NCBI GenBank assembly: GCA_026075535.2
Contig: AP026546.1
Span: 3,534,001 to 3,598,000 of the forward strand
Length of the DNA stretch: 64,000 nt
Source: Tricholoma matsutake
Taxonomy: Eukaryota; Basidiomycota; Agaricomycetes; Agaricales; Tricholomataceae
Direction of reading: 5' to 3'
The position numbers and the translations under genes are program-made. Below, piece after piece: positions 17,951 through 58,995 of this stretch. Positions within the stretch are counted from its first letter, which is position 1. The number at the start of each line of letters is the position of its first letter. A model generated the notes under the pieces. That model saw only the letters and a program-made list of their open reading frames with translations, searched no databases and was not told the DNA's origin.

Positions 17951-18054
17951 GAGGTCTTTACACTCCCCCCCCCCAATCCGAGTGGACTCCACTTGGACAC
18001 TTGGACTGTACTTGGACTGTCCGAGGACTTTGCTCAGACTTCTTTGGCTGAAAG

Positions 18055-18817
18055 TGTTATGATTTTGTTATCTGGACCCGCAAGGCCAGGCACTTCATTT
18101 TTCCTTTCTGACACGACATGACTCACTTCTGATGGGAGACACTTTGACGCATGGTGACTCCATGCACCTGAACCCACTCCCACACATACTGTGATACGAC
18201 AGCCCTTTGACATGAGGTCCGTGACGTCGGACACTCATGATCGACATGCTGTGCTGCAGCATGTCCTTGACATCGGATCCTTGACATCAGATCCATAACA
18301 TTGGACACCTCATGCTAGGCATGAGGCTATTCTCTTATTGATCCCTGACATGCTGCACCGCAGCACTCCGCAACATCGGACACCTCATGCAAGGCATGAG
18401 GCCTGTCTTTTCTATTGTTCTTTCTATTTATACTTGATAATGATCCTGCATTCCGATTGGACGATAGGTATCTTCAAACCGTATATAAGCTGTAGTAATA
18501 CTGCCTGTATTCCTCAGCTTGACCTAATTCAATCAACGGTCTTAGACTCAACCAGAACACTCGACAGCTTAGGAAGCCCCTAGCTGTGATAACTCAAACT
18601 CGACAGTTGGAAAGCCTCCAACTGTGATACACGAACTGATGGTCTACTCAGAAAGCCTCTGAGTACGAATAGCCGTAACGACTTGAGGAAGTACCCAAGT
18701 GAAGGCCAGAAGCCCGATACACTAGGAAAGCCTCCTAGTGCGATACCGATATAGTTGGAAAGCCTCCAACTGTGACATACAAAGCCAAGGCTGAGTTAAA
18801 GACCTATAGTCTTAACA
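18055..18817 (+). repeat. gypsy-1 5' LTR
   Basis: 763 bp, with a repeated CATGAGGC/GCATGAGG palindrome region and a series of GGAAAGCCTCC-type repeats near the 3' end. It has about 26 bp more than the 3' LTR around 18240-18270. Confidence 0.9.
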
Positions 18818-19101
18818 AAAGGTCAAGCTGATCTACGCAGTCCACCTACCTAGGTGCAGACACAACGTCTTTCAGACAAAGCCCAGACAGACCTCCAACT
18901 GGAGCATCATCATCAGGAAGAACCCCGTGGTATAGATACCAGGGTCGACTAGTACAATACTTGGAACCAGCACAAAAGTGGTTCTTAAGGAGAACCAGTG
19001 ACGAAAAACCCCGATACCTTGACGAGGAGGATTTTAGATCCTTCGATAAAGAAGAAACCCCAGAACGAGATCCATTCTCCCTATCTGACGACAATGCCAA
19101 C

Positions 19102-19953
19102 ATGTCTACCGAACCCACCGCATCGACCAAGGAGACCAGGATACGAACCCCCTCCGACTTCACAGGGGACTGAACTAGAACTGCGAAGTTCTTACAAGAA
19201 GTGAAACTCTATTTGAGAGTGAACCATGGAATCTACGACACCAACGAGAAGAAGATCATCTTCGCATTGTCCTTCATGAATGGAGGAACCGCTGCGCCCT
19301 GGGCACAGACTTGGGCAGAGAAGGAAGACCTAGGAACCTGGTCTACCTTTGAAGCAATGCTCAAGACAGCGTTCACGCCAATCGATGAAGCTGGCAGAGC
19401 CAGGACAGAGATGAAAACATTGAAGCAGGGACAGGACCTGGAGGACTACATAGCGCAGTTCCGAATCCTGCGAGAGAAGGCGGGAATCAATGATGACACC
19501 GCCCTCATCGAACTCTTCATGGATGGGCTGAACCCCAAGCTCCTTGAAAGAGTTTTCAATATGGAAACGATCCCGATGACCTTGGAAGGAATGATCAACG
19601 CTGCCTCCAAGTACGATGGACAGTGGAGGAGAGCAAAAGCCATAACAGGAAGGCTGCAGGAGGCTTTGACAAGGAAGCTACCAAGCTCTAAAGCAAAAGA
19701 GACCCCACTCAAGATCAACCGACTCTCCTATCAGGAGAGGATCGAACACATGAAGAAAGGGTTGTGCTTTGTCTGCCACCAGCCAGGGCACAGAGCAACT
19801 GAACACAAGAAAGGGGAAAAGAGGACTGAGGACCGGCCATCCCCAAAGAATAAAGGCAAGGAAGCCCACTCGAGGATCCGAGCATTCGTAGGAGAACTTG
19901 ATGAAGAAGAAAAGAAGGGAGCTCTCGCCGCCATTGAGGACGAGGGTTTTTAA
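19102..19953 (+). pseudogene. gypsy-1 Gag
   Basis: The frame starts at ATG 19102 (context CCAACATGTC). It has a TGA at 19171 where relatives carry Arg, and ends at TAA 19951. The capsid region contains KIIFALSFMNGG, WAEKEDLGTWSTF and ELFMDGLNPKLLERV. Near the C-terminus is a zinc knuckle, CFVCHQPGHRATEH, in which the last ligand is His rather than Cys. The end of the frame reads G GGT TTT TAA, and pol is open in the -1 frame across this point. Confidence 0.85.
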
Positions 19954-22780
19954 AGAGGTGGCCTGCCTTGATGCCAGGTACCACTGAACTCTCTGTCTGC
20001 TCTGTACTACTAGCCACTTTGAAGAATCAATCTATGCGTCTAGATGTCAAAGTGGCAGGAACAGGCAGAGGAAAAGACATTGAAACCGAAGCCCTACTCG
20101 ACTCAGGAGCGGGAGGGATATTCATGAGCCATGAATTTGCGGAAAACAGTGGATTTGAATTGCGCCCCCTGGAGAGGATAATCAGAGTCAAGAATGTGGA
20201 TGGAACCCCAAACAAGAGAGGGGAGATCTCCCACTATGCCAGAGGACTCTTAATGATCAACAGAAGGATCTTCCCAATGACATTCCTCATTGCAGGATTG
20301 GGAAGCGAATCAATCATCCTAGGCCTACTGTGGCTCAGAAGAATCAACCCAGTGATTGACTGGAAGATTGGAACCTTCCAGTTCAGAACAAAGGATGAGA
20401 CTTACCCAGAGTTCTCATATGGGAAAGGAAGAACCCTTATTGGAAGGGTGCAAACCGAGAAACCCAATGAAGGGTACCTATCATGGCACCAGAGGGGAAC
20501 CGAAAAGAAGAAGGACCCCCTAGACATGACCAAAGAAGAGTGACAGGCATAGTGCCAAAAGATTGTCGCCAAAGGACAAGAAAAGCTTGCCCTCAAGAAG
20601 AAGACTGCCGAGGAAGAATGAGCATGATGGAAAAAGGTGGCCACCAGAGAGCTGGAGAAACTGGCTGCCAGGAAAGAAGAAGGACGACTGGCAGTAGCCC
20701 AAATAGTTGCGAAAGAGAGGAAAAAACTGGACCTCAAGAAAGAAGAAAAGCGACTGGCACTGGCCCGGATAGTCGCAAAAGCAAGGGAGAAGGTAGCCCT
20801 GAAAAGCAAGAAAGAAGAACTGGCAAAAGAAGAACGCCGAGAGCTATGCCAAAGAGTTGTCGCCAAGGTGAAACTGATGGGAGGAGTCCTCCATGAAGAA
20901 CCAAGAAGAAGCAAGATGCCCATCAAGACAAGAAAAGCGATGATCAAAGAAATCAACGATGAAGAGATTGCGATCACGACTCTTCAAGATGCGGAGCCCA
21001 TTGGGCCACAGGACGAAGAAGACACTGGGAAGGAAAACCCAGCACTGGCAAACCATGAACAGGCAATGGAACAGGCAATGGAACAGACACCCGAACAAGA
21101 AATCGCAGACAATGAACTACTGATCGCCTACATTTGAGGAGAACCCGTCATTGGAATATTCGAACCGGCTAAGACGCCACTGACAGAGGAGTATGACGAG
21201 CCAAGATACAGATACTCCCAGAAGACAAGGACAATCTCTCGAATCGTGAAGGCAAAAGGATCACTGCGATATGCATATGGACAGAATATGTGGATTAGGG
21301 CAAAGACATTGGTCTCACAACACCTGACACATAAGAAGGAAGGAGACCCCAAACAGAAGACCCTAGACAAACTACTCCCAGAACAGTACAAGGAGTACCG
21401 ACGGATATTTGAAAAGGAAGCATCGGAAAGATTCCCAGAGTCAAGGCCCTGGGATCATGCGATCAAACTTAAACCGGATTTTATGGCAAAGGACTGCAGG
21501 GTTTACCCGTTATCGCTGGCAGAACAGAGGAAACTCGATGAGTTTCTCGACGAAAGCCTGAAGAAAGGATACATCCGACCATCAAAATCACCCATGGCAT
21601 TGCCATTCTTCTTCATTGCGAAGAAGGACTCAGATGCACTACGGCCCTGCCAAGATTACAGGTACTTGAACAATGGGACGATCAAGAACACCTACCCACT
21701 GCCACTGGTAGGAGACCTGTTGGACAAACTGAGAGGGGCAAAATGGTTTACGAAACTGGACATTTGATGGGGGTATCACAATGTCAGAATCAAGGACGGA
21801 GATCAATGGAAGGCAGCCTTCAAAATGAACCAAGGGCTGTTTGAACCAACGGTGATGTTCTTTGGATTATGCAACTCACTGGCGACCTTCCAGGCAATGA
21901 TGAATGAGATATTCCATAACATGATCAGAGAAGGATGGCTCGTGATTTACATGGACAACATCCTGATATTCTCCAAGGATCAGAATGAACACCAGGAAAG
22001 GACAAAGAGGGTACTGCAAAGACTGGCAGAAAATGACTTATACCTGAAACCAGAGAAATGCAAATTCGACGTCCATGAAGTGGAATTCTTGGGTCTGATC
22101 ATCTGACCCAACGAAATTGCCATGGACAACACGAAACTGGCAGGTATACAAGATTGGCCAACCCCGACAAATGTAAAGGCAGTCAGATCTTTCCTGGGAT
22201 TTGGAAACTTCTACAGGAAGTTTATCGGACATTTTGTGGAGACAAGCAGACCGCTTAATGAACTGACAAAGAAGAACAAAGCGTTCAACTGGACAACGGA
22301 ATGCGAACAGGCTTTTCAAATGCTGAAAAGGAAATTCGCAGAAGCCCCAGTACTGCTGATGCCAGACCCGACAAAGCTATTCACGATCAAATCAAATGCC
22401 TCAAAACATGCGACAGGAGGAGTGCTGAGACAAAGGGACATGAATGGGGACTGGCACCCGTGCAGATACATATCACATGTGCTAACACCAACAGAATGGA
22501 ACTACGAGATTTACGACAGGGAGCTACTAGCGATAATACGATCGCTAGAAACCTGGAGACACTACCTAATGGGTTCAGAACACCCAGTGGTAATCCTGTC
22601 AGATCACAAGAACTTGACATACTTCTGAACGGTGCAGAAACTGAACAGATGACAGGCAAGATGGAGCTTATTCCTATCGGAATTCGAACTGCAAATCGTC
22701 CATGTGCCTGGATCACAGATGGTACAGAGCGATGCGTTATCACGGAGAGCAGATCACATACCGGAAGAAGACAACAATAA
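19954..22780 (+). pseudogene. gypsy-1 Pol: protease, RT, RNase H
   Basis: In order: aspartic protease (ALLDSGAGGIFM at about 20092), a Lys/Ala-rich linker (20540-20880), RT from RPWDHAIKLKP (21450) through WFTKLDI to the palm, and RNase H ([26 protein letters not shown]). The RT motif YxDD reads YMDN at about 21948-21959, losing a catalytic Asp. Stops: 20541 TGA, 20550 TAG, two TGA near 20619-20627, 21135, 21765, 22104, 22626 and 22650 (all TGA). Where the family residue is clear, for example LDI-R-WGYHNV and LNR-R-QARW, it is Arg. Confidence 0.88.
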
Positions 22781-24274
22781 TGAAGATGTCACGATGCTGC
22801 CAGAGGCAGTATTTGTGAAGTTCATTGACACCAAACTGCATAACTTACTCGCAGGGAGTATCATGAAAGACGACCTGGTGAAAAGCGCAATTGAGGTGCT
22901 AAAGACCAAGGGAATGCTGCTAATAAAGTTGGCATTGGAAGACTGGAAGATAGAAGACGGCCTTCTATTCTTCCGAGACAGGTGCTACATCCCAGACAAC
23001 GGAGATCTACAAAAGAAGCTGGTGCAAAAGTACCACGAAGGAGTGACCAGCGGACACCTGGGACAATGGCAAACAACCAAAATGATCAGGAGAGACTACT
23101 GGTGGCCGGGGATGATGATGTACATCAAGAACCATGTTGCTGGATGTGCAATATGCCAGCAGATGAAGGTCAACATGCACCCGATGACCCCCCACTACAA
23201 CCAATCAAATCTGAAGCAACAAGACCATTTGCGATGGTGATGACCGATTTCATAACTGACTTACCAGAGTCCAATGGTTATGATGCACTCATGGTCATGG
23301 TAGACCATGGGCTTATGAAGGGGGTAATTTTTATCCCTTGCAGGAAAACTATAGATGCATTGGGAGCGGCCACCCTCTATCTAGACAATGTCTACAAACG
23401 ATTCGGCCTCCCAGACAAGATCATCTCTGACAGAGATCCCAGATTTGCCTCGCAGCTGTTCCAGGAGCTAGGAAGACTGCTCAGAATCAAGCTGGCAATG
23501 AGCACAGTGTACCACCCCCAGACTGACAGGGAGACAGAACGGGTGAACCAGGAAGTGGAAGTATACCTACAGATCTTCTGCTCAAACAACCAGGAGAATT
23601 GGAAGCACCTCCTCCTGACTGTGGAGTTCACACATAACCAGAGGACGCACTCTGTACAGAAGAACTCCCCATTCTACCTCATGATGGGCTACGAGCCCAA
23701 GGCAATCCCACTCCCCTACCTGAAGACAAACATACCGGCCATAGAAAAATGAATAGTTGCACTGCAATGGGCCCGAGACAAAGTGAAGGCAACTCACGAG
23801 TTAGCCAGACAAATGATGGCGGAAAGAACAACAAGGCACTTCACCCCATTCAAAGAAGGAGACAGAGTGTGGCTAGAAGCAAAGAACCTCAGAATGACGC
23901 ACGAAACAAAGAAGCTCGCACCAAAAAGAGAAGGATCATTCTCTATCGAGAAGGTCCTGAGCCCACTCTCCTACCCACTGAAGTTGCCAGAACAGTGGAA
24001 GATACACCCTGTATTCCACGCGGCACTTCTTTCCCCTTATAAAGAAACCGAGACACATGGCCCAAACTTCCCAAAACCTCCGCCGGATCTAGTTGAAGGC
24101 GAATCGGAGTACGAAGTGGAAGCGATCATCGGACACAAGAAGAAAGGAAGGACCATGCACTTCCTAGTGAAATGGGTCAGATACCTGACCTCGGAGAACT
24201 TGTGGGAGCCTGAGGGGAACCTGACTAATGCCAAGGAAATTCTAGGGGCATATAAACAGCGACGACAGCTGTAG
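22781..24274 (+). pseudogene. gypsy-1 Pol: integrase and chromodomain
   Basis: The zinc region is present (KYHEGVTSGHLG and CAICQQMK). A 1-bp loss in a C-run near 23196 shifts the frame just before the catalytic core, which then reads MTDFITDLPESNGYDALMV, ISDRDPRFASQLF and YHPQTDRETERVNQEVE, so D, D and E are retained. A TGA lies at 23750. The C-terminus carries a chromodomain (EYEVEAIIGHKKKG; FLVKWVRYLTSENLWEPEGN), the feature that directs chromoviruses to marked chromatin. The frame ends at TAG 24272. Confidence 0.88.
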
Positions 24275-24844
24275 AACCCCCAAGACCAAAACACCCACCG
24301 AACCAACCACAAAAGAAACCACAGAATGCCCACCATCCCATCGACACTACACCTACCATGAACCCCAGCACAGACTGGGCGAACAGTCGTCGACCAATGA
24401 CCACTGATGAACATACTCCCTGGCAGACCTGCATGGATATGCCCGCATGGGATTCCCTTCTGGATTACAAGGGATGATTGGATAAGAAGGATGACCTCGA
24501 CCTGTCCGAGATGCTGTCTCTTTGCCTGGAGAAGCACGAAAGTGGATTACAATTGGGTGAGGGCACAGTATGAAGAGTGGTGCTTTGAGGGAGAACTAGA
24601 CGAGGAGGACTATTTCCCAGAGGACTTCTACATTGATCCAGAAGGACTCGCCCCTGGCAGAAGACCACTATCAGGGGTAAGCGTGCCCCTGTGGAGAGAC
24701 CTGCAGTGGAATACCCACTATGATAACAAGAGCGGATATAGCCTGGCGAAGAGGCTCCTGCTCGGAGAACATGGAGAGTTGGGAACACTGCTGTGCTCCA
24801 ACCGATCCCTCAAACCCCATGACCCCGCCCCACCTCCTGACTAG
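24275..24844 (+). pseudogene. gypsy-1 pol C-terminal extension or accessory ORF
   Basis: In the same frame as the chromodomain, beyond TAG 24272 and two TGA codons, an open stretch of 145 codons (ATG 24407 to 24844) reaches almost to the 3' LTR. It has CPHGIPFW, CPRCCLFAW, WVRAQYEEWCFEGELDEED and a run of acidic residues. The Cys spacing (CPHG...CPRC) suggests a small zinc-binding unit. I do not recognise the family. It may be a C-terminal tail of Pol separated by mutated codons, or a third gene. Confidence 0.5.
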
Positions 24845-24900
24845 AGAGGAGAAAGAGATTTTGATTGAAGTCAGTGACTTTGAAGATAGAGAGAGGGTGA

Positions 24901-25637
24901 TGTTATGATTTTGTTATCTGGACCTGCAAGGCCGGGCACTTCATTTTTCCTTTCTGACACGACACGACTCACTTCCGACGGGAGATGCTTTGATGCATGG
25001 TGACTCCATGCACCTGAACCCACTCCCACACATACTGTGATACGACAGCCCTTTGACATGAGGTCTGTGATGTCAGACACTCACAATTGACATCAGATCC
25101 TTGATGTCAGATCCATAACATTGGACACCTCATGCTAGGCATGAGGCTATTCTCTTATTGATCCCTGACATGCTGCGCTGCAGCACTCCATAACATCGGA
25201 TGCCTCATGCAAGGCATGAGGCCTGTCTTTTCTATTGTTCTTTCTATTTATACTTGATAATGATCCTGCATTCCGATTGGACGATAGGTATCTTCGAACC
25301 ATATATAAGCTGTAGTAATACTGCCTGTATTCCTCAGCTTGACCTAATTCAATCAACGGTCTTAGACTCAACCAGAACACTCGACAGCTTAGGAAGCCCC
25401 TAGCTGTGATAACTCGAACTCGACAGTTGGAAAGCCTCCAACTGTGATACACAAACTGATGGTCTACTCAGAAAGCCTCTGAGTACGAATAGCCGTAACG
25501 ACTTGAGGAAGTACCCAAGTGAAGGCCAGAAGCCCGATACACTAGGAAAGCCTCCTAGTGCGATACCGATATAGTTGGAAAGCCTCCAACTGTGACATAC
25601 AAAGCCAAGGCTGAGTTAAAGACCTATAATCTTAACA
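24901..25637 (+). repeat. gypsy-1 3' LTR
   Basis: 737 bp with the same ends as the 5' LTR and several transition differences. The GAAAG duplication follows at 25638-25642. Confidence 0.9.
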
Positions 25638-25721
25638 GAAAGTCCTGCCAAACTAGATGTCCAGTCGGAGCTGAGTCCTCGGACTGTCTGAGTTGCTTAT
25701 ATAATTGACTGAAAAATCAGT

Positions 25722-25803
25722 GGCTACCGCAGGGATTGAACCCTCATAGTCACATGATAAAGTACATTTAAGGCAACAATATAACCGTTAGACTAAAGTA
25801 TCA
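25722..25803 (-). repeat. tRNA-like Pol III promoter, left end of element A
   Basis: On the minus strand there is an A box TAGTCTAACGG (25795-25785) and a B box GGTTCAATCCC (25742-25732) about 50 nt apart. The acceptor stem does not pair, so this is tRNA-derived rather than a tRNA gene. It points outward, toward the TIR. Confidence 0.65.
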
Positions 25804-25844
25804 TTACAGATAGATAGTTTTATCTCTCTATGTACCACCCTGGC

Positions 25845-26475
25845 TGTGATGACAAATCAACACAGCCATGTCACCAACAATGATGCCAGCTCATCGTCGA
25901 TCATCACCAACCACCACCACCACCACCACTCAATGATGATGCCTCCCTCCCGCATCCTGGTGCCGCCACTGCCCCATGAACACCCCACAGCCATGGGCCC
26001 CATGCCAGCACACAATGAAATGGGCCCAAACGACTCTATTGTCATTTGGGCCCCAGGTGAGTTTTTTCTTTTTTCTTTTCTCATGTTTTCTTTAAGCTAA
26101 CACATTTTTTCATTAATTATAGGTTATATCTATACTGTAGCAGCAAAATGACCCCAAAACCACCAAACGAGGAACAACAATGAGACCATGACCCAGCACC
26201 CACCCCCGCCAGTGAGAGCAACTGCTCGCATGGGGGAGAGCAGCTGCTAACAACGACGACGATGACAGGGAACAACAATGACAGGGAACAACAATGACAG
26301 GGAACAACAACACCACCCGCCCCAGCCCTATGAGCCACTGCTCATAGGGTGGATGACGGGTGGAACGACAACAATTAGGGGAGACCCAAGAGACATCAAT
26401 GTCTCTTGGGTCCTAGGTAAGCTTTTTTTTCTTTTCTCATTTCATTTTTCGATGCTAACTAACTTTTTATAGGTA
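25845..26475 (+). repeat. Intron-like modules of element A
   Basis: Two units have a GGGCCC or TCTTGGGTCC hairpin immediately before a donor: GTGAGT to AG at 26057-26122, and GTAAGC to AG at 26417-26472. Both contain a T-rich tract and a GCTAAC-type branch site before the acceptor. The second unit is preceded by the hairpin CCCTATGAGC / GCTCATAGGG (26326-26349). Confidence 0.65.
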
Positions 26476-26565
26476 CAAACTACTACTGGCAACGACGACG
26501 ATGGGGGGACACCACCACCACCACTGCTGCGAGCCCCTGCTTGCAGGGTGGAAGGTGAGGGTGAA

Positions 26566-26832
26566 GAGACGAGGGGGAAGGGAGATGAGGGGGAAGGGAG
26601 ATGAGGGGGAAGGGAGATGAGGGGGAAGGGAGACAAGGGGGAAGGGAGACAAGGGGGAAGGGAGATGAGGGGGAAGGGAGACAAGGGGGAAGGGAGACAA
26701 GGGGGAAGGGAGATGAGGGGGAAGGGAGATGAGAGGGGAGGGAACAGAGATGAGAGGGAACAGAGACGAGAGGGAATGGAGACGAGAGGGAACAGAGATG
26801 AGGGGGAATGGAGATGAGAGGGAAGGGAGACG
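26566..26832 (+). repeat. GGGGGAAGGGAGA minisatellite
   Basis: About 265 bp of almost purine-only tandem repeats with units of about 15-16 bp. Both strands stay open by composition, not because of coding. Confidence 0.8.
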
Positions 26833-27157
26833 ACGACCCCGCCCCACGCCTACAAGCATCTGCTCGTGGGGTGGTTCGGGGGGGAGAAGAATGGGGCCAG
26901 GAGAGCAAGATGGCCAGGGGACAACCTGGGGAGAGACGAATGCCACCACGAGCAACAGTTGCTCGTGGTGGGTGTTATTATTGATAGTTACAGCCCCCTC
27001 CCCTCGAGCTTGCGAGGGGAGGGCTTAGGATTATACATACTTACCCATATTAATTACCCCTTGCACAGATGCGAGGGGGTCAATTTAATAATCTATTCAT
27101 GATATATATAAAAATTAGATTTCAGTAATAAATAGATATAATGTATGTGACTTTAAA

Positions 27158-27250
27158 TGACTACTTGGCTTAAGTGGTAGAGTGTGCATGTTTGGTCATC
27201 ATGTGATTGCTAGTCCAGAAGTCTGTTGGTTCAATTCCTGCTGTGCACAC
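27158..27250 (+). repeat. tRNA-like Pol III promoter, right end of element A
   Basis: A box TGGCTTAAGTGG (27166-27177) and B box GGTTCAATTCC (27228-27238), oriented toward the right TIR. A near-identical copy lies in element B at 33724-33815. Confidence 0.65.
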
Positions 27251-27518
27251 ATCATTTTGTGAGACTTATAAGAATTTCTGTAAGTCTGGAACTTGGACAA
27301 TACTTTAAAGGTGTAAGTAAATGCACAATTGATGTTGTCTGAGCAAAGTCCGAGTGTCCGAGCAGAGTCCGAGTGAAGTCTGAGTGTCCGAGCAGAGTCT
27401 GAGCAGAGTCCGAGTGTCCGAGTGTGTCCGAGCAGAGTCCGCTCGGACTGGGGGGGGGGAGTGTAAAGTACTGTTGCTAGTCTATTAATTAAGTGGCTTC
27501 TAAGGTTGCCCTTATAAT

Positions 27519-31980: not shown

Positions 31981-31982
31981 AA

Positions 31983-47994: not shown

Positions 47995-48082
47995 AGGATT
48001 GAACTCAAGACATCTTGATTAGAGTGATCACATGACAAACCAAACATGTGTGCTTAACCAGTTGAGCCACAGGAGAATTATT
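47995..48082 (-). repeat. tRNA-like Pol III promoter, left end of D2
   Basis: On the minus strand: TGTGGCTCAACTGGTTAAGC, then GTCATGTGATC and GAGTTCAATCC. Close to the right-end sequence of element C. Confidence 0.6.
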
Positions 48083-48164
48083 AGATAGTAATATAATGTT
48101 TATTCATGACACTCTAATTTTTTTTGGAGTAGTGAAAGATCAAATTTTTTGAATTAACCACATC

Positions 48165-48425: not shown

Positions 48426-48959
48426 GGGGACGTGACCCCGCTGTTGTCTGTCCTTCCACCCACGATCCACCCCACGAGCAGTTGCTCGTGAGGCTGGGGG
48501 TAGGTGGCTTGTTATTGTTGTCATTCCACCCATGATCCACCCCACAAGCAGTTGCTCGTGAGGCTGGGGGTGGGTGGTGTGTCGTTGTCATCTCCTGTCC
48601 CTGTGCCTGGGCGTCATTCCACCCACAATCCACCCCACGAGCAGTTGCTCATGAGGCTGGGGGTGGGTGGCTTGTCGTTGTTTGTTGCTGTTGTCCCCTG
48701 TCTGGATTTGTGTTTTTTTCTTTTTTTTTTTGGGGGGGGGGGGGGGGGTTTGGGTGCATCAGTGCGACATGGCACGAGTACAGAGGTTGGTGGGTGCTTA
48801 CTAGGCAGGTACCCTTCCGGGGTCTCCTGGCATCCCTCTGCACCCTCCTAGCCCATGTCGACAGCCTCACATCCCATTTGAATGGGGAAGAGGGGATTGG
48901 GTGGGCGTGGGCGTGGGTTGCGCATTTTTGGTCGTGGCAGGTCGTCCCCAGTAGTATAC

Positions 48960-49500
48960 AACCTAAAAAGCAATAAATTACAATTAGTTCATTGATAAAA
49001 ACAAAAAGAAATAAGAAAAAACTTATCTATGGCCCAAATGATATTGCCGTCGTTTGGGCCTGCATTCCATCCAGTCAGCTCGCATTTTTCATCGTGGCAG
49101 GTCATCCCCAGTAGTATACAACCTAAAAAGCAATAAATTACAATTAGTTCATTGATAAAAAGAAAAAGAAAAAAGAAAAAAAAAACTTATCTATGGCCCA
49201 AATGATGGCAACGTTGTTTGGGCCCATGTTCCATCTGGCAGTAGAGTAGAACCTATAAAACAAAAGAAACAAATTAGTTAGTTTATAAAAACAAAAAGCA
49301 AACAAAAGAAAACTTACTTAGGGCCCAAACGACATGATCTGCATCATTTGGGCCTGTGTTCTGTCCAATCACATCATTTGGGCCCATGTTATGTCTGGCA
49401 GTCGAGTAGGACCTATAAAACAAACGAAACAAGTTAGTTAGTATGAAAAAACAAGAAGCAAACAAAAAAAAACATACTTAGGCCCCAAACAATGTGATCT
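48960..49500 (-). repeat. Four tandem intron-like modules of D2
   Basis: On the minus strand each unit has a TTTGGGCC hairpin, donor GTAAGT or ATAAGT, a pyrimidine-rich tract, CTAACTAAC or a degenerate form, and acceptor TATAG or TTTAG followed by GTTCTA or GTTGTA. Units repeat about every 120-160 bp. Confidence 0.6.
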
Positions 49501-50004
49501 GCGTCATTTGGGCCCGCATTCCATCCAGTCAGCTCATTTGAAGGTGGTGGTGATGGTGGCATTGGGTGTGGGAACGGTGGTGGTGGGTGCGCATGCAGTG
49601 GTGGTGGTAGAGTGGAGAAGAGGAGGAGGCAGCGTTGGCGACAGTGGTGGTGGTGGTGGTTGTGAGCTGGCAGTCACGTGTCACGTGTCATGCATATGCA
49701 TACTTATTAATTATTCCATTAATGGCTGTGATTAACAGTACTTTACAGTCCCCCACCTGTCCTAGTGGACTCCGACCAGACTGACCTGGAGTCTGACTGG
49801 AGTCCAAGTGGAGTCCGAGTGGAACTACACTAAGTCATGTAGAGTTCAATCCCCCACTGGAGTCCAACTGGAGTCTGAGTGGAGTCCAACTGGGGTCCGA
49901 GTGGAATGCATTTCAACCAAATGATAAGTCAATTAGATATGAGCTCAAAGGACTTTGGACTTGGTGAATTTCATAAAGTACCCACAAAATAAATTTGTGT
50001 ACTG

Positions 50005-50092
50005 CAGGAATTGAACTCAAGACCTCACCATAAGGAATCACATGACAAACCAAACAAGTGTGCTCAACCACTTGAGCCACAGGAGATTTATT
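50005..50092 (-). repeat. tRNA-like Pol III promoter, left end of E
   Basis: On the minus strand: TGTGGCTCAAGTGGTTGAGC, then GTCATGTGATTCC and GAGTTCAATTCC. Confidence 0.6.
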
Positions 50093-50277
50093 AGAAATCA
50101 ATATAAGGTTTATTTATGACTCAACTTTTCATATTCTTCGAGGAGGCATTTTTCAAACAATTAAGATCAAAAAAATTTAATTAACCACATCCCTCGTGTA
50201 GGACATGAGGGAGTGGGTATAATATAATAATAAACAAAAAAAACCCCTCTCACAAGATGCGAGAGGGGGGGGATTAT

Positions 50278-50678
50278 TGTTAGGGCGACACCCACTATCT
50301 GCTAGCTAAGACCGTGCAGGTTCTCTCTACAAGATGGGGGCAGGATCCGCGCTCGTGATGGGGGAATTGATGGTTTTGATGTGAGGGGTTATTAATAGGT
50401 GAGTTTGTTGAGATAGGCCTTTCACACCAAAAACGTAGGTGGAATACCTAAGAGAACACAACTGGGGTCCCCTAGGCATATATTTATGGTTTATATACTA
50501 TGTTACACATATTGTACATTGTTGTTACCGATGCACTTGTACATGCGCGTACATTTTGATGCGTGCGAAATAAAATTCTCACACTATCAAAGTGTAGCAT
50601 CATTTGGCATCATGTAGCATAATTCGACATAATAAAATAAAATGAAATTTTATTAGGTAATGGGGTGGTTTCCTAACA
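50278..50678 (-). repeat. gypsy-2 3' LTR
   Basis: 401 bp; differs from its partner mainly by transitions and a 4-bp insertion (GGTG) near the end. Confidence 0.9.
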
Positions 50679-50689
50679 TTACCCCCCTT

Positions 50690-52276
50690 TTATGCCTCGA
50701 CTTCCAGGTGAGAAAATATTATGTTTGTCCCCTCTGTGAAATTTTGGTAAGGCCGGAATTTCATCCCCTCATACACCATTCTTGCAATGCAATGCGGAGC
50801 ATTCAGATTACGTTTAAAGAATTGGGTGATTGCGTTACGCGCTCGCTTACAATTCTCTTTGGGTTCCCATGAATTATTTTCGTCGGTATAGTTTTTCCAC
50901 TTTATTAAGAACTCCAATTTGTTCCGTCGAAGACGTGAGTCTAGAATTTCTTCAACTATGTATTCTGGAGCACCTTCTACTATTATCGGAGGTTGTGGAG
51001 TAGTTTGTTGGCCAGGAATAGTGGGTGGGCGGTAAGGGCGTAGGCAGGATACATTAATCTCGGGATCAATCTTGAATGATTGGGGTAATTTTAGCACTAC
51101 CACATTAGGCAAGATTACTTTAGAGATCGCATATGGGCCAACTTGTTTTTCCGTAAGTTTCCTCAAAGGTTGTGGGATATTCAGGTCCTTGGTACTTAGC
51201 CATACCAAGTCACCAACTTTGTACTCTGGAGCGCGTGCTCGAGTACGATCCGTGTGTCGCATCATGTCATCACATGCTTTCTTCAATGCCGCCTCTGCTT
51301 CCTCTTGTACCTTTTGCATCTTAGATACAAAGTCTTCTGCCGACTGTACTTTGACTTCCCTTCTGGGTTCTACTCCCATGCGAGGATGATATCCATAATT
51401 CGCGAAAAAGGGTGACATATGAGTAGCCAAATGGAATTTGTTATTGTGGGAAAATTCGGCAATTGCCAACCATTCGGGCCAGTCGGTTTGTCGGTAGTTG
51501 ACAAACATACATAGGTACTGCTCCAACTCCTGATTCATTCTCTCTGTCTGCCCATCAGTCTGCGAGTGATATGCCATAGATAATTTAGTTTGAATTCCCA
51601 ATATGTTGTTTAGTTCTCGCATAAACACGGAAGCAAATTGTGGTCCGCGATCGGAGATAACGGTATCGGGTAACCCATGTAACCGCCATACCTGATTTAG
51701 ATAGAGGCACACCAAGCCCAATGATGAGGTTTCTGTAGTAGTAGGAATAATATGGACCTCCTTTGTAAAGCGGTCGCATACTACGAATATTGCATCGTAC
51801 CCTTGAGCCTCGGGTAATCCAGTAATAAAATCCACAGATATATCTTGCCATGGCGCTTTAGGTATAGGGTTCGGCATTAATTTTCCTGCAGGTTTCTCTG
51901 GAAATTTCTTCCCCCTCATGCACGTATCACATCCATCCACATACCCCAACACATACTTCGAAATTCCAGGCCACCAATAATTTCTCATTACTAATTCCAA
52001 TGTCTTCCATCTTCCTGGGTGTCCGGCAATCAGTGTATTGTGATGTAACCAGACGATCTCCCTTCGCAAATCCTGATCCTTCGGTACATACACTTTTCCT
52101 TGAAACAACACCAACCCTTGTTCCTCAGCCCATTCATCTCCTTTGATATTACCTTTCTTCTCTCCCTTCAGAGCTTTCACGGCTTCCACTACTTCATCGT
52201 CCATTTCCGAACATTGTCTAATTTTAGACAACATTTCCATTTCCGAGCTATCTATTAATAGATGCCCTTGATGCAT
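50690..52276 (-). pseudogene. gypsy-2 Pol: integrase and chromodomain
   Basis: A 528-codon open frame continues from RNase H across one TAA at 52295. It has the HHCC zinc region (HHNTLIAGHPGRWKTLEL; CDTCMRGK), the core DISVDFITGLPEAQGYD, ISDRGPQFASVFM and YHSQTDGQTERMNQELEQY with D, D and E intact, the GDLVWLSTKDL C-terminal region and a chromodomain (EYIVEEILDSRL; FLIKWKNYTDENNSWEP). It looks functional apart from the upstream stops. Confidence 0.92.
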
Positions 52277-52294
52277 AGCGCAAATGCGAAAGTA

Positions 52295-54654
52295 TTAGGT
52301 TTTGAGTAAGGTAACATTTTTATTGTCCTCCTCCACCCCCCTTTTATGATCAATACGTCTGGATAATGCATCTGCTTTCCTCATTAAGCTTCCCGCTTTG
52401 TGGACCAAGTGAAAGTTGAAATGCAATAGGAATAGTGCCCAACGCGCTTGCCTGCGATTAAGCTTTTTAGCAGACATAAAGTATTGCAGATTTTGATGAT
52501 CCATCCAGATCTCAATCTGATGCGTACATCCCTCCAAATAATGCCTCCACACCTCCAATGCTCGTATTATCCCCAACATCTCTTTGTCATGCACATCATA
52601 ATTCCTCTCCACATCATTCAACCCTTTTGACAAGTATGCACAAGGATGCCATTTGTCATCTTCGCACAGCATTGATAATACCGCTCCAGTAGCAAAATCG
52701 GATGCATTGGATTCCACTCACAAAGGGCGTGTGAAATCTACTGGGGCTAATATTGGTCCCTCCACAAACTTCCTCTTCAACTCCTCAAACGCTGTCTGCT
52801 GCTGCTCTCCCCACCTCCATACTACTCCCTTTTGCATAAGGTTATGTAAGGGTGCAGCAATTTTAGAAAAATTGTGCACAAAGTGATGATAATAATTTGC
52901 GAGTCCCAAGAAGGCTTGAACCTCCTTGACATGGGTGGGTGCAGGCCAATCTGTGATCGCCTGTACCTTGATCGGATCCATTTTGATCCCGTCAGGGCCA
53001 ATCAATAATCCTAGGAACTTAATCTCGCTTGCCCCAAACACACACTTCTCTGGTTTCAAAAATAGATCGTTTTCCGCCAACCTCCGTAGCACCTCCTGCA
53101 CTATCACCTCATGATTCTCTTCATCCTCTGTAAATATCAGAATGTCATCAATAAATATTATTACCACGCCTTTGTCTATTACATCCTTGAAAATGTTGTT
53201 CATCATATTTTGAAAGGTCGGGGGACTATTAGTCATCCCAAAAAACATGACAAGCGGCTCAAAGGATTTTTGACGTGTGGCAAATGCTGCCTTCCACTCA
53301 TCTCCTTTCTTTATTCATACATTGTTGTATCCCCATCGTAAATCCAATTTTGTAAAGACCTTGGCTTTTCCCACCTTGTCAATTATTTCTGAGATCAACG
53401 GCAGGGGGTACGCGTTCTTCACTGTCCACTCATTCAAATACCTATAATCTGTACACATCCTCTTCCTTTGGTCTTTCTTTGGCACGAAGAATATTGGTGA
53501 CGTCTGCGGTGATTTCGAAGGTCGTATGTATCCTTTGTGCAATTGCTCCTTCAGGAATGCATCCACTTCTTCTTGTTCCATGGGAGATAACAGATATACC
53601 TTCGACTTCTTCGGCACAAACCCTGGCTTCATCTCAATCGCATGATCCCATGGCTTCCACACCGGCATTCACTCAGACTCCTTCTTCTGGAACACTGACA
53701 GATGTTCATGATACACTTTTGGCACCCATTCCTCCACTGGCTTCTCCACCTTCATGATATTCTTGTCCCATGACTGTCCTCCACGAATTGTTCTAAAGGT
53801 TTGCTTCTGCTCTTCTTTCTTGATCATGATCGGAACTTCCCCATTTGGCATTTCCTCATCCTCCACTTCCTCCATTGTAACAGAATACTTTCTCGGACGT
53901 TCTTTCTCTTTCTTTTTCCTTTTTTCCTTCTTCATCTTCCTCCCATACACATTACATTCCTTAGGACAACGAGTCATTTGTACTTTCCCAGTTTTCCAAT
54001 CAATTTTGGGATTATGCTTCTGTAACCACGGACATCCTATTATTAGATTGGTTTTCCCAAGATCGCACACTTCGAATACGGCTCACTCCTGATGCTCCTG
54101 ATACTTTAGTACCATAGTCACCTCCTCCTTGATAGTTCCTCCATGATTGACTGTTCCATCAATATTGTACACCATTATAGGTTGCGCCAGCTTGCGTGTG
54201 TTAATACCGTTTCTGGTAATTAAGGATCAATTAATAAATAATCCTGTAGCACCACTATCAAGCAATGCTTCCACATCAATAGCTGCATGCATGTCCACTG
54301 TCTTCAATCCCACAGTCAAGGTGATTTCTGGTTCTATTCATGCAGAGCGAATAAAGAATTTAGGGGTTTTTGGAAATAGTGCTCGGCAATTTTCTTGGTC
54401 ACGTGATTCATAACAGTTGTACTCCTCCTCGATTTCCTTTTCTGATTTACTCTGGGTTTCCTCGGATACTAATACATTGTAACGATTCTGGGTCACCAAT
54501 GGGGAAACCTTCACTGGGACTCTTCCGCAAAATTCTTCTGCTTGCCTTCCTCTGGCTTCACTTCCTTGATTGTAGCTTCCCTAATCTTTCTTTTCTGCCT
54601 ACAATTCCTAGAAATGTGTCCTAACTGCCCACAGTTAAAACATTTAAGTGGGGC
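52295..54654 (-). pseudogene. gypsy-2 Pol: protease, RT, RNase H
   Basis: Protease has DSGATGLFIN near 54255. RT runs from [13 protein letters not shown] through [13 protein letters not shown], with the palm FIDDILIF intact (YxDD variant), to FLGLANYYHHFV. RNase H starts VESNASDFATGAVLS. TGA codons at 54338, 54227, 54083, 53669, 53315 and 52718 (plus-strand positions of TCA) fall between otherwise continuous sequence, and TAA at 52295 precedes YFRICAMHQG. Restoring only these points would give a single frame, but no repair is proposed here. Confidence 0.9.
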
Positions 54655-55528
54655 TCATCTCCCTGCTTGATCAACCTCCATTGCCTCTGCTGGTGCTGCT
54701 GACTCCGTAACTATAGGTGTCACTGCCATGGCCGGTGGCTGTGCCCTCGGAGCTTGTGCCTGAGGCGCCTTTCCTTTCTTGGACTTTCCTCCTGATGACT
54801 TTCCAGATTTACTACTTCTGTACATCAACTTTGACTCCGCCTGTTCCTGCCGATATTGCCAGTCAAGGCGCATTGCCCAATTATACCACTCATCCAATTT
54901 CTCTGGCATAGAAGGTAGTCGAAGCTTCTGCTTTGAACTGCAAAATAAATTCATCTGCCATTAAGGAACCTTGGCGCATGGTCTTTAATTTAGCATTGGC
55001 TGTCACCTTTGGATTAGGGTCTCCAAACTGTGCCTCCAATCTCTCCAGAAATTCCTTGAAGGTTGCAAATGGTTTATTTCCCATGGCAATTTGATTAATA
55101 GCCTCGTTTCTCCAGAACTGTGCTTTTCCCCCCTGAATGTATGAGAGAGCAAACATAATCCTAGACTCGGCTGTATGAAACTCTGGCTTCCTCCCATGGA
55201 TGTACAATACTATAGAGCTGATGAAGGATTTTGTATTCTCCATGGTACCGTCAAAGATTTGTGGGGGCACGTACTTAGGTAAGCACGCTTTTCCATTTCC
55301 GGATTTCTCTGCTGTCTCATCCTCCTGCGATATCCACTCCACCATCTCCTCCATCTCATCATCTCTTTCTCCTGTCGTCTCTGGCTGTACTTCCACTTGT
55401 CTGGGCTGTGATGCTGCCAATACTGACACTAATTGCGACATTTGTGCTGTGAGCACATCAATTTTTGCCTCTAGTGCTGGTATGGGAACAGGATTAGGAC
55501 CGGGATTAGAAGTTGAAGGTTCGGACAT
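54655..55528 (-). pseudogene. gypsy-2 Gag
   Basis: From about 55528, MSEPSTSNPGPNPVPIPALE, a helical stretch, then IMFALSYIQGGKAQFWRNEA and FLERLEAQFGDPNPK mark a Gag capsid. Near 54940 the frame jumps (FILQFKAEAS to PSMPEKLDEWYNWAMRLD), consistent with an internal deletion of the central capsid part. A basic SGKSSGGKSKKGK stretch follows, then TGA 54655 and the zinc knuckle CFNCGQLGHISRNC just downstream. Confidence 0.88.
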
Positions 55529-56015
55529 AATTGTAGAATCTGTGATGAATCACTTCTTCGACAAATTCAAAATTTTTTCTTCGAGACCTCTCCAAACGTT
55601 TATGGGTCACGTGATAAGGTTCGTCGAGGTTCGTCAATCGTTCATTGTTCGTCAGGTGCCTATTTTGACACTTCGGATCAATAACCCTTCCAACAGTGCC
55701 TGATCTCGGAGATAACACTGAATTTGGCTTGTAACTAAAATAGTTGTCCAAATAGAGTAATGTAAATCATAACTAAACCAGATCCGATCAGTTGTCTGGT
55801 TGCAGCTGTCCTAATGACGAGTGCTGCCTCTCGATCACTGGCAGTCACAATGTAAGGCGAGGCCTGGCATTGGCTTATGAAAGAAAAGGTAGATTACATA
55901 TATACAAGTACTTCTGGCTCATGCCGAAAGGATGAGTAATCGGATGTGGCGCGGTGAAACAATGACATATGCACAAGTAAGAGAAGGTGCACTGATATGG
56001 GTAGTTGTGTTCTTC

Positions 56016-56412
56016 TGTTAGGGCGACACCCACTATCTGCTAGCTAAGACTGTGCAGGTTCTCTGTACAAGAAGGGGGCAGGATCCGCGCTCGTAATGGG
56101 GGAATTGATGGTTTCGATGTGAGGGGTTATTAATAGGTGAGTTTGTTGAGATAGGCCTTTCACACCAAAAACGTAGGTGGAATACCTAAGAGAACACAAC
56201 TGGGGTCCCCTAGGCATATATTTATGGTTTATATACTATGTTACACATATTGTACATTGTTGTTACCGATGCACTCGTACATGCACGTACATTTTGATGC
56301 GTGCGAAATAAAATTCTCATGCTATCAAAGTGTAGCATCATTTGGCGTCATGTAGTGTAATTCGACATAATAAAATAAAATGAAATTTTATTAGGTAATG
56401 GGTTTCCTAACA
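56016..56412 (-). repeat. gypsy-2 5' LTR
   Basis: 397 bp, TG...CA, followed on the right by the ATTAT duplication. Confidence 0.9.
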
Positions 56413-57120
56413 ATTATGACTATGTACATAAAAAACTAAACCCCTTGCGCCAAACATGAGGGGGGGATTCGTAAGTACTACAATATATATACCCCTTGCA
56501 TTCAGTGCGAGGGGGGGGGCAGAGATAAATTAAAAATAATAAAGACCCCTCCCCATGCAAAATGTGGGGGAGGGGGGGGTTGGGGGATGCGGTCTGGGGT
56601 GGGTGTCATTGCCCACCCCTTCTCGCATGCGTCCATCGCCATAGCAAGCCGCACCTGTCATCCACCCTACAAGCCTCTGCTCGTAGGCATGGGGATGGGT
56701 ACCGTGGTGGTCATAGCCCTGGTGTACCCACCATCCACCCGACAAGCAGGTGCTCGTCGGCATGGGTTGGGTGTGTTGTCGGTTTTGTGGGTCTCCTAGT
56801 TCGGAGGGGTTGGGGGGAGTGGTCAGTGATGTGGCATGCGAGGGAGGGGGTAGGTGGGTGCTTACCAGGTGGGTATCCTGCTCTGCAGGTTTCCCAGTAC
56901 CCCTCTGCCATCTCCTATCCTTTATCAACACCCTCACATCCCGTTTGGATGGGGAGGAGGGGGCTGGCATGGGTGTCATCGGGTCTGGGTCGTTCTGGGT
57001 CCTGGTGCTAGTAGGCGGTGTCATCATCGTCATCATCGACTGCCCACACTCACAATCCACCCTATGAGCAGGGGCTCGTAGGCGTGGGGTGGGTGTGTTG
57101 GCTCGTTTGCGGGTGGTGGT

Positions 57121-57500
57121 GTCATTACTAGTAGATTATAACCTAGAAAACTAAAAAAACGAGTTAGTTAGTTTATAAAAACAAAAATCAAATGACAAAA
57201 ACTTATGTAGGGCCCAAACGACACGATCTGCGTCGTTTGGGCCTGCGTTGGCTCGTTTGTGGGTGGTGGTGTCATTACTAGTAGATTATAACCTAGAAAA
57301 CTAAAAAAATGAGTTAGTTAGTTTATAAAAACAAAAAACAAACAAAAAAAACTTATGTGGCATCGTTTGGGCCCATGTTGGCTCATTTGTGGGTGGTGGT
57401 GTTGTTACCAGTAGATTATAACCTAGAAAGCTAAAGAAACAGGTTAGTTAGTTTATAAAAACAAAAAGCAAATGAAAAAAAAAACTTACATAGGGCCCAA
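57121..57500 (-). repeat. Tandem intron-like modules of E
   Basis: Three to four tandem units of about 120-130 bp on the minus strand. Each has a CAAACGA..TCGTTTGGGCC hairpin, a donor such as ATAAGT or GTAAGT, a T-rich tract, ACTAACTAAC and a TCTAG or TTTAG acceptor next to GTTATAATCTAC. Unit-to-unit identity is high, indicating recent tandem growth. Confidence 0.65.
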
Positions 57501-57635
57501 ATGACATGATCTGTGTCGTTTGGGCCCGCATTACATCCAGTCGGCTTGTTTGTGGGTGGTGGTGATGGCGGATTGGGTGTGGGAGCGGTGGTGGTGGGTG
57601 TCCACACAGTGGTGGTGGTAGAGCGGAGAGGAGGG

Positions 57636-57676
57636 AGGCGGTGTCGACGGTGGTGGTGGTGGTGGTGGTGGTGGTG
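57636..57676. repeat. GGT microsatellite
   Basis: A run of GGTGGT near the right side of E; it generates open frames with His or Gly runs only. Confidence 0.85.
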
Positions 57677-57775
57677 AGTGATGAGCTGGCACATTTGATG
57701 ATGCAGCTATATGCTTTGTCATACACAGCTGCACCACGGTATCTAATGCAAATAGATGATACCTTACACAAGGTA

Positions 57776-57852
57776 CTGTGGTGTAATGGTTATATTGCAT
57801 ATTATAATTACATAAGCAACCTACAGGGATCTGGGTTCAATTCCTTTTCTTA
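57776..57852 (+). repeat. tRNA-like Pol III promoter, right end of E
   Basis: A box TGGTGTAATGGTTAT (57779-57793) and B box GGTTCAATTCC (57834-57844). Confidence 0.6.
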
Positions 57853-58159
57853 CACACTTTTTCAGCGGAATCCGACTGGACTCTGACTGGACTCCACTGG
57901 ACTAGTCCAAGTGGAATCCAGTGTTTGAGTGGATTCCACTCAGAGTCCGGTTGGACTGGACTGGGACTGGACTGGCAACTTTGCAGGCAGTTGGCTGGTG
58001 ACCAGTCCCAGTGGACTCCAGTCAGACTCCAGTCGGACTCTGGTCAGTCTGGTCAGACTCCAGTTGGAGTCCACTAGGAAAGGTGGGGGAGTGTAAAGAC
58101 CTCATGATTAACTACGTACCTTGGTTGGGTAATAAAAGTATTAAATGTATGCCCAAGAA

Positions 58160-58245
58160 TAATTGCTTGGTAGCTCAGTGGTTAAGTGTGCTGTTATGTG
58201 TGCAGACCCAAGGTCGAGTGTTCAATTCTTGATGTGTGTCGAACT
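58160..58245 (+). repeat. tRNA-like Pol III promoter, right end of D2
   Basis: TTGGTAGCTCAGTGGTTAAG and GTGTTCAATTCTTG; a sister copy lies at 61765-61855. Confidence 0.6.
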
Positions 58246-58995
58246 TTTATTTGGGAAAGCACGTGCATTCCAGTTATTCCGGTTAGTCCGGTTATTCCTG
58301 TTATTCTGGTTGTGATGAGTCTGGTCAGATTCCGGGGATTCCAGGTGTAAATTGGATCCTTATTCCGACTGGAATTGTGTTGCATAGGGAAAACTACATA
58401 CAAAAAAAATTCCACCAGATTCCAGAAATTCTGGAAATTCTGGCCGGACGAACTGGAATCCAACTGGAATAGGTGGGGGAGTGTAAAGTACTCAAGATCT
58501 GACACAAATTCTAGATTTTAAATTACAACTACGACAAATTAAAATACTTTTAGACCTAAGGGCTACTACATAGACGATGGTCAGGATGTAATCAGTAACA
58601 GAAAACAAAGGGGGGGCTTGCCAGTCATTGTGGTACCCCCATTGTTGTTGTTGCCATCCCTGGCCTTCTCACTGGTGGTGGTGGTGGTGTCGACCTCCCA
58701 TCATTGGTGTTGGCATTGGCATTGTTGTCTGTGGCCTTCCTGCTGCTGGTGTTGGTGGTGTCAGCCCCATCATTGGCATTGTTGTTGGTGGTGTCATCAC
58801 AGGTCTTGGGGCCTCCATTGTGGTTGTCACCCCAGCCATCCCTGTGGCTGGGGTTGTCATTGGTGTTCACATCATCAATTTGGGCCTCTTTGTTGTCATC
58901 AACCTGGGCCTCCTCGTTGTCACTGTCATTGTTGTTGTTGTTGGCATTGGTGTTGTTGATGGCCTTGCTGTTGTTCTCATTGTCAGCCTCCCCAT

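What the first reader, a model, noticed from the sequence alone, without database searches (positions are those of the whole stretch)
17951..58493. A family of large non-autonomous TIR elements with outward-facing tRNA-like promoters at both ends
Elements A (17951-27473), B (32092-34064), C (36527-38843), D2 (47826-58493) and E (49737-58103), plus lone ends at 42882 and 62106, share one anatomy. Ends are close to GAGGTCTTTACACTCCCC and CAGTACTTTACACTCCCC. Inside each is a short palindromic array whose unit differs per element (TCCGAG, CCAGGACTC, TTCCAGT). Then comes a tRNA-like A-box/B-box pair pointing toward the end. The centre holds hairpins and intron-like modules. tRNA heads are normally a SINE feature, so a TIR element with one at each end and 8-9 bp target duplications is unusual. 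I know of no described family with this layout, but I could not search.
Basis: partly seen in the sequence, partly recalled or inferred. Interest (0 to 1): 0.9.

Follow-up and report, generated by a model that had tools for sequence, protein, structure and literature searches.

The report
Mushroom DNA transposons with tRNA-like ends
These are abundant cut-and-paste jumping genes of a mushroom genome, moved in all likelihood by a larger relative that codes a cysteine-rich protein, and unusually most ends of the small ones carry a tRNA-gene-like unit that points outward, a layout I could not find described.

Summary
Real, but smaller and better explained. A, B, C, D2 and E are 1.9-2.3 kb non-coding TIR elements; A and E look large because LTR elements sit inside them, D2 because E does. 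The lone ends (42882, 62115) bound a decayed coding element, F, split by D2. Elsewhere in the genome the same ends flank 5.7-6.8 kb elements coding a CxC5/CxC6 (KDZ-associated) protein, with 8-bp target duplications (16 of 29 elements, 0 of 812 mismatched pairs) and empty sites. Non-coding subfamilies share end sequences with particular coding ones, so they are probably partners. The tRNA-like units hold up: 52 of 83 ends have one pointing outward, 1 of 83 inward; TTTT follows the B box within 45 nt in 51 of 52, so transcription would stop inside the element. Fifteen unit types keep boxes and spacing while linkers are near random. None of those searched scores as a tRNA. Transcription is untested; the best guess is Pol III/TFIIIC landing sites that insulate or open the ends. 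A CxC5/CxC6 insert of unclear class that broke MSH4 in Pleurotus (PMC7641404) is probably a relative.

The parts
17951..27473 (+). Element A, TCCGAG subfamily, X end left, Y end right; 9-bp duplication TTGCTAGTC; interrupted by an LTR element
18055..25637 (+). LTR retrotransposon nested in A (LTRs 18055-18817 and 24901-25637; duplication GAAAG)
   Evidence: empty site in L046 and L047, L049 did not align there
25713..25797 (-). A, X-end tRNA-like unit (A box, B box, T-run), pointing to the X end
   Evidence: read by eye; homologous to the unit in B (family D10)
27166..27258 (+). A, Y-end tRNA-like unit
32092..34064 (+). Element B, TCCGAG subfamily, uninterrupted, 1,973 bp; no duplication found
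32174..32258 (-). B, X-end tRNA-like unit
33732..33824 (+). B, Y-end tRNA-like unit (Rfam tRNA 18.6 bits, below the 29-bit cut-off)
36527..38842 (+). Element C, CCAGGA subfamily; no duplication found
36851..36931 (-). C, X-end tRNA-like unit
38315..38406 (+). C, Y-end tRNA-like unit (B box 468 bp from the end, so missed in the 480-bp scan)
42882..62115 (-).
   Evidence: collinear with L018, 90.9% over 3,015 aligned columns; empty site of D2; no duplication at F's own ends
43093..45427 (-). F coding part: CxC5 (44339-45427), CxC6 (43656-44078), C-terminal exon piece (43093-43302)
   Evidence: Pfam PF18718 E 1e-25, PF18721 E 2.3e-9
47826..58493 (-). Element D2, TTCCGG subfamily, Y end left, X end right; 8-bp duplication AAGATCTG; interrupted by E
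47974..48069 (-). D2, Y-end tRNA-like unit
58171..58248 (+). D2, X-end tRNA-like unit (B box one mismatch from the pattern)
49736..58103 (-). Element E, CTAGTGG subfamily, Y end left, X end right; 8-bp duplication TGATTAAC; interrupted by an LTR element (boundary uncertain by 1 bp)
   Evidence: empty site in L037, L038, L039, L043
50278..56412 (.). LTR retrotransposon nested in E (duplication ATTAT)
49986..50080 (-). E, Y-end tRNA-like unit
57779..57848 (+). E, X-end tRNA-like unit (T-run 1 nt after the B box, another further on)
61774..61861 (+). F, X-end tRNA-like unit
   Evidence: read by eye, resembling D2's X unit; F's right end was too diverged for the scan
33150..33244 (+). Example of a hairpin joined to an intron-like module (in B)

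Best explanation
A-E are non-autonomous partners of at least four co-resident subfamilies of a cut-and-paste DNA transposon whose coding members (5.7-6.8 kb) encode a CxC5/CxC6 protein. Shown: shared ends, 8-bp duplications, empty sites, subfamily-related end sequences, outward tRNA-gene-like units (A box, B box, T-run). Inferred: the CxC5/CxC6 protein is the transposase and reads the subterminal repeats of its own subfamily. Inferred and weaker: the units recruit TFIIIC/TFIIIB and Pol III, make an RNA of roughly 90-110 nt that stops inside the element, and work mainly as chromatin boundaries that keep the ends (and, at the X end, the neighbouring transposase gene) open in a repeat-packed genome. 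My sub-confidences: element identity 0.93, CxC5/CxC6 protein is the transposase 0.8, units bind the Pol III machinery 0.55, boundary role 0.3.
For: Coding elements with these ends and a duplication of at least 7 of 8 bases: L018, L019/L020, L024, L025 (TTCCGG), L027, L028 (CTAGTGG), L033 (CCAGGA); L032 (TCCGAG) has 9 bp. All elements: at least 7 of 8 in 16 of 29, 0 of 812 mismatched pairs; free register 20 of 29 and 6 of 812 (L019 and L020 are one duplicated insertion; L031's right flank was cut off and counts as a miss). Empty sites: D2 site in 3 of 3 and E site in 4 of 4 relatives tested. End sequences related partner by partner. CxC5/CxC6 Pfam hits; C-terminal motifs conserved across subfamilies. 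Units, recounted: outward 52 of 83 ends, inward 1 of 83; TTTT within 45 nt after the B box 51 of 52, against 15% of random 45-nt windows. Fifteen unit types with boxes picked by hand: mean pairwise identity A box 0.63, next 5 nt (outside the search pattern) 0.64, B box 0.83, linkers 0.29-0.31; T-run 13-20 nt after the B box in 14 of 15. Contig C1: 23 of 35 Y units of one type lie 243-768 bp from a facing end, 0 on the wrong strand; another type gives 23 end-unit pairs on the expected strand, 1 on the other, 0.59 by random shift.
Against: No transcript, ChIP or transposition data. No tRNA hit at the Rfam cut-off; two units searched alone gave 18.6 bits and nothing. In coding elements 12 of 17 X ends but only 2 of 15 Y ends have a strict unit (13 and 3 with a looser B box); L031 and L032, both of TCCGAG type, fail both scans at the X end, the L032 unit being seen by eye only. 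With the looser B box 7 of 83 ends also match inward, none with TTTT. No PF18758 (KDZ catalytic) hit in the 10 coding ORFs tested; hhalign with one canonical KDZ gave no support; both AlphaFold models were poor. 13 of 29 elements lack a canonical duplication. E's repeat counts are mixed and those of L033n fit no named subfamily. TATA-like sites upstream in only 25 of 55 units (background 0.16).
Confidence: 0.72

Rival explanations
1. The tRNA-like units are inert remains of tRNA genes or SINEs caught by an ancestral element and carried along.
For: No cloverleaf score (window; window and 23 loci; best single unit 18.6 bits; listed host tRNAs 41-61 bits); a Y unit is absent from most coding elements (2 of 15 Y ends strict).
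Against: Fifteen types keep A box, B box and T-run spacing while linkers are near random; outward orientation 52 against 1.
Confidence: 0.3
2. The units are independent SINE insertions near the ends.
For: A/B-box heads are a SINE feature; at least 58 of the 81 Y A boxes listed on contig C1 had no exact TACTTTACACTCCCC end at 1-3.5 kb on the expected strand.
Against: Similar place relative to the ends, one orientation, several subfamilies, no SINE tail or own duplication noticed by eye in B, C, D2, E; unpaired ones may pair with other or mutated end types (not tested).
Confidence: 0.07
3. The elements belong to MULE or hAT rather than to the CxC5/CxC6 lineage.
For: 8-9 bp duplications also occur there (recalled).
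Against: The matching coding elements carry CxC5/CxC6 and no MULE or hAT domain in the 10 ORFs scanned.
Confidence: 0.04
4. LTR (Copia) machinery moves the CxC5/CxC6 fragments, as PMC7641404 suggested for Pleurotus.
For: LTR elements sit inside A and E.
Against: These LTR elements have their own LTRs and 5-bp duplications, while the TIR elements have TIRs, 8-bp duplications and empty sites.
Confidence: 0.03

Closest known systems
KDZ (Kyakuja/Dileera/Zisupton) DNA transposons, e.g. Cryptococcus KDZ1-3 (PMC12810828, passages read)
   Same: TIR DNA transposons of fungi, 8-bp duplications (KDZ1; KDZ2 and KDZ3 4-8 bp), cysteine-cluster protein
   Different: Cryptococcus ones are 9-11 kb with 139-241 bp TIRs and CxC1 plus KDZ domains; here CxC5/CxC6, no PF18758 hit, short imperfect terminal match plus subterminal repeat arrays, tRNA-like units
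CxC5/CxC6 insert in poMSH4 of Pleurotus ostreatus (PMC7641404, passages read)
   Same: 6,792 bp, ORF of 739 aa with CxC5/CxC6, multicopy
   Different: The main text has no occurrence of 'inverted repeat', 'target site' or 'tRNA'; the authors suggested Copia involvement
tRNA-derived SINEs (recalled)
   Same: A/B box head, loss of cloverleaf
   Different: Here two units facing opposite ways in a TIR element with 8-bp duplications and a terminator after each unit
MITEs and other non-autonomous TIR elements (recalled)
   Same: Non-coding, share ends with a coding partner, high copy number
   Different: About 2 kb, with an interior of hairpins and intron-like modules found in several subfamilies

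Membership tests
KDZ superfamily | 8-bp target duplication | tested here: met
   reference values from PMC12730594 and PMC12810828 passages (Laccaria Kyakuja make 7 bp)
KDZ superfamily | KDZ catalytic domain PF18758 in the coding partner | tested here: not met
   10 ORFs scanned, no hit up to E 1; distant homology left open
KDZ superfamily | CxC cysteine cluster | tested here: met
   PF18718 and PF18721
KDZ superfamily | D-D-E catalytic triad in an RNase H fold (recalled) | tested here: inconclusive
   motif order similar by eye to one canonical KDZ; hhalign and AlphaFold gave nothing usable
CxC5/CxC6 transposons (working name) | coding partner with the same ends | tested here: met
SINE | internal Pol III A and B boxes | tested here: met
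SINE | retroposed structure: one head, tail, variable duplication | tested here: not met
   TIRs and 8-bp duplications
tRNA genes | cloverleaf (Rfam RF00005 above 29 bits) | tested here: not met
   window and 23 loci, two units alone
Pol III transcription unit | Pol III occupancy or transcript | not testable with these tools
   no RNA or ChIP data
MULE / hAT | superfamily transposase domain | tested here: not met
   no such domain in the 10 ORFs

The most novel reading that the evidence does not exclude
Pol III units are a working part of the transposon: TFIIIC/Pol III complexes assembled at both ends bring or keep the ends together and open (TFIIIC sites are known from recall to cluster and to act as boundaries), so that transposition depends on the host tRNA-gene machinery; the hairpin-intron interior of the non-coding partner is a second, conserved RNA-based part.
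Probability: 0.17. Interest if true: 0.87.

Novelty: new variant of a known kind. Interest (0 to 1): 0.64.

Why it matters
It gives CxC5/CxC6 genes, present in many copies in two mushrooms (here, and in Pleurotus by PMC7641404) and so far without a clear mobile form that I could find, a defined DNA transposon with ends and duplications, and so offers a simple answer to how such a fragment broke MSH4 in sporeless oyster mushroom. It also shows, in a family with more than two thousand matches to its end patterns in one genome, tRNA-gene-like units placed near the ends of a cut-and-paste element. If they work, a DNA transposon uses the Pol III machinery; if not, their keeping of boxes and spacing across fifteen divergent types needs another cause.

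Tried and rejected
Read-out promoters: unlikely, since a T-run follows the B box inside the element in 51 of 52 strict cases. Functional tRNA genes: rejected for the units searched. Large elements: rejected, nested insertions. Fold of the CxC5/CxC6 protein: two AlphaFold jobs, mean pLDDT 34 and 36, unusable, so no fold search was run. Profile comparison with one canonical KDZ protein (L053): no support; the alignment is shallow. Rfam microRNA and snoRNA hits below the cut-offs were taken as chance hits, mostly on hairpins. One search counted one end (L027, 76) through a slicing error; one search recounts without it, so 53 became 52 and 52 of 53 became 51 of 52; one search carries the same single error. 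In the TTCCGG coding X ends the strict scan picked an inner B box (GGTTCAACCC), while one search used the next one (TGTTCGATTC). One search had one wrong row (C, Y unit); redone. One search's intron pattern missed E's modules; one search replaced it. Papers: searches for a described TIR element with Pol III or tRNA-like ends, or for CxC5/CxC6 elements, gave no description of this layout in the listings; most subscription papers, Repbase and Dfam were not searchable.

Full report
Source. The window is C9:3534001-3598000 of an unnamed assembly of 161,040,721 bases in 13 contigs. This fits the telomere-to-telomere Tricholoma matsutake assembly, 13 sequences and 161.0 Mb (PMC10211490, abstract start in the listing). 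The species name is inferred.

What is in the window. The stated ends are there. The sizes are not what they seem. A is interrupted by an LTR element at 18055-25637 with a 5-bp duplication GAAAG. E is interrupted by another at 50278-56412 with duplication ATTAT. So the nest is LTR element in E in D2 in F. Empty sites agree: the D2 site is empty in L018, L024 and L019 (3 of 3 tested) and the E site in L037, L038, L039 and L043 (4 of 4 tested), with a single copy of the duplicated bases. For the LTR element in A, 2 of 3 relatives tested show the empty site (L046, L047); L049 did not align there.

Duplications. In 29 elements with both ends in view, 16 have at least 7 of 8 matching bases in one fixed register, 11 of them 8 of 8; among 812 mismatched left/right pairs there are none. 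With a free register the numbers are 20 of 29 and 6 of 812. A and L032 have 9 bp. L019 and L020 are one insertion duplicated with its flanks, and L031's right flank was cut off. In the window A, D2 and E have duplications; B, C and F do not.

The coding partner. F has a reading frame with CxC5 (PF18718, E 1e-25) and CxC6 (PF18721, E 2.3e-9). A search of the genome with the CxC5 piece gave 115 matches. I fetched 20 of these places. Fourteen show both ends; they are 5.7-6.8 kb, 8 of 14 have the 8-bp duplication at 7 of 8 or better and L032 has 9 bp. They fall into four subfamilies, and each goes with one kind of non-coding element. By repeat counts: TCCGAG for A, B, L046, L047, L049 and L032; TTCCGG for D2, L037-L039, L043 and L018, L019, L024; CCAGGA for C and L033, L035. 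For E the counts are mixed (6 of TCCGAG type, 4 of GTTGGACTCC type; L027 and L028 have 4-5 and 10), so its pairing with L027/L028 rests on 89-91% identity of the ends. One further non-coding element (L033n) fits none of the four. Coding and non-coding partners share roughly 100-250 bp at their ends, up to 400 bp in the TTCCGG subfamily. I take the CxC5/CxC6 protein to be the transposase, which is inference: PF18758 was not found in the 10 ORFs scanned, and the motif order (VVVDG, YICIDKAC, YHYxNH, CNPAP, ACEQLNAW) resembles one canonical KDZ protein by eye only; hhalign gave no support and AlphaFold failed.

The tRNA-like units. I call the end upstream of the coding gene X and the other Y. Over the 83 ends with 480 bp of inside sequence in the window and fetched loci, 52 have a strict A/B-box pair pointing outward and 1 inward; with a looser B box 61 and 7 (which corrects by one). 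TTTT follows within 45 nt of the B box in 51 of 52 strict and 58 of 61 loose outward cases, mostly at 13-20 nt (43 and 56), where a tRNA gene's terminator would be, and in none of the inward cases; a random 45-nt window of these ends has TTTT in 15%. By class: coding X ends 12 of 17 strict, coding Y ends 2 of 15, other ends, mostly non-coding elements, 38 of 51 (45 of 51 loose). Many of these copies are related, so they are not independent. Fifteen unit types, coding and non-coding, with boxes picked by hand, have A-to-B distances of 47-64 and a T-run 13-20 nt after the B box in 14 of 15; mean pairwise identity is 0.63 in the A box, 0.64 in the next five bases, which were not part of the search, 0.83 in the B box, and 0.29-0.31 in the linkers. 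X units are seen in coding elements of all four subfamilies, in L032 only by eye and with a degenerate B box; a Y unit is in coding elements of one subfamily (L027-L029). They do not score as tRNAs: ARAGORN found none in the window, Rfam none at E up to 1 in the window and 23 loci, and of two units searched alone one gave 18.6 bits against a cut-off of 29 and the other no tRNA hit; the listed host tRNAs score 41-61 bits.

Whole-genome check. The A box of one Y type (up to 1 mismatch) occurs 1,112 times against 0 for the reversed pattern, another 345 against 0. On contig C1, 23 of 35 units of the second type lie 243-768 bp from a facing end and none from an end on the wrong strand. For the first type, 81 units and 100 ends give 23 pairs on the expected strand, 1 on the other, and 0.59 on average after random shifts. 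At least 58 of the 81 are not paired by this exact pattern; other end types or decay may explain that, which was tested only for the GAGGTC end on part of the contig (2 more of 56 units, 20 with either end).

The interior. Non-coding interiors hold 2-6 perfect hairpins of at least 7 bp against shuffle means of 0.4-1.2 (12 elements; 5 of the 12, with 2-3 hairpins, do not exceed the largest of 30 shuffles); coding interiors stay within the shuffle range (1-7 against means of 2.2-3.5, 6 elements). Of 67 intron-like sites, 38 have a strong hairpin directly before the 5' splice site, against 12 of 256 displaced sites, some of which lie in the same elements. In 33 anchored hairpins two inner pairs covary (A-T 20 and G-C 13, 33 of 33 paired against 24.9 in shuffles; 30 of 33 against 14.8); others do not exceed shuffles, the anchor fixes the CCC/GGG pairs, and few independent changes are involved. 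Interiors of different subfamilies are partly collinear at 68-82% local identity, similar to or somewhat above the coding DNA between subfamilies (66-71% in the longer matches), which suggests old partners that diverged alongside their coding elements. The role of the hairpins and introns is unknown to me; splicing control is the plainest guess.

How it works, most likely. Cut-and-paste by the CxC5/CxC6 protein acting on subfamily-specific subterminal repeats. The units probably bind TFIIIC/TFIIIB; because a terminator lies inside, any RNA is short and internal, so a boundary or opening role is more likely than read-out. At the X end of coding elements the unit lies between the end and the gene and faces away from it, a place that would suit a boundary. 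That tRNA genes and TFIIIC sites act as boundaries is recalled; one search lists papers on it, of which I saw only the listing.

Known work. KDZ elements of Cryptococcus have CxC1 with KDZ domains and 8-bp (KDZ1) or 4-8 bp duplications (PMC12810828, passages). Zisupton makes 8-bp duplications, two Kyakuja of Laccaria 7-bp without TIRs (PMC12730594, passages). In Pleurotus a 6,792-bp CxC5/CxC6 insert broke poMSH4; the authors found no KDZ gene near such ORFs and suggested a link to Copia elements (PMC7641404, passages). That insert is probably of the present kind. The matsutake repeat paper PMC6980582 has no occurrence of KDZ, TIR, DNA transposon, MITE, SINE or tRNA in its main text. My searches for such a layout found none in the held library, by listing.

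Noticed in passing
window 45831-46875: An insertion inside F relative to L018 holding two hairpin-intron modules and GC-rich hairpins, apparently a fragment of another non-coding partner.
   Followed up: partly
window 62116-63960: Hairpin-intron modules directly beyond F's right end, apparently another non-coding element fragment.
   Followed up: no
window 34065-34360: Tandem repeat TTTTGTCGGGTCA starting right at the right end of B; may explain the missing duplication there.
   Followed up: no
window 10357-10472: Long inverted repeat (about 45-bp arms) that gives weak microRNA matches below the cut-offs, on both strands for one family.
   Followed up: no
window 15706-16319 and 58993-59574: Diverged duplicate repeat (pieces of 82-93% identity) 43.3 kb apart, the second copy inside F.
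   Followed up: no
L019 and L020 (C8:11.24 Mb and C8:10.79 Mb): Same insertion with the same flanking bases in opposite orientation: a segmental duplication on one contig, not two insertions.
   Followed up: partly
whole genome: 165 matches (lower bound) to the canonical KDZ domain PF18758; none of the places listed there lies inside the 20 fetched CxC5/CxC6 places, but the list was cut.
   Followed up: partly
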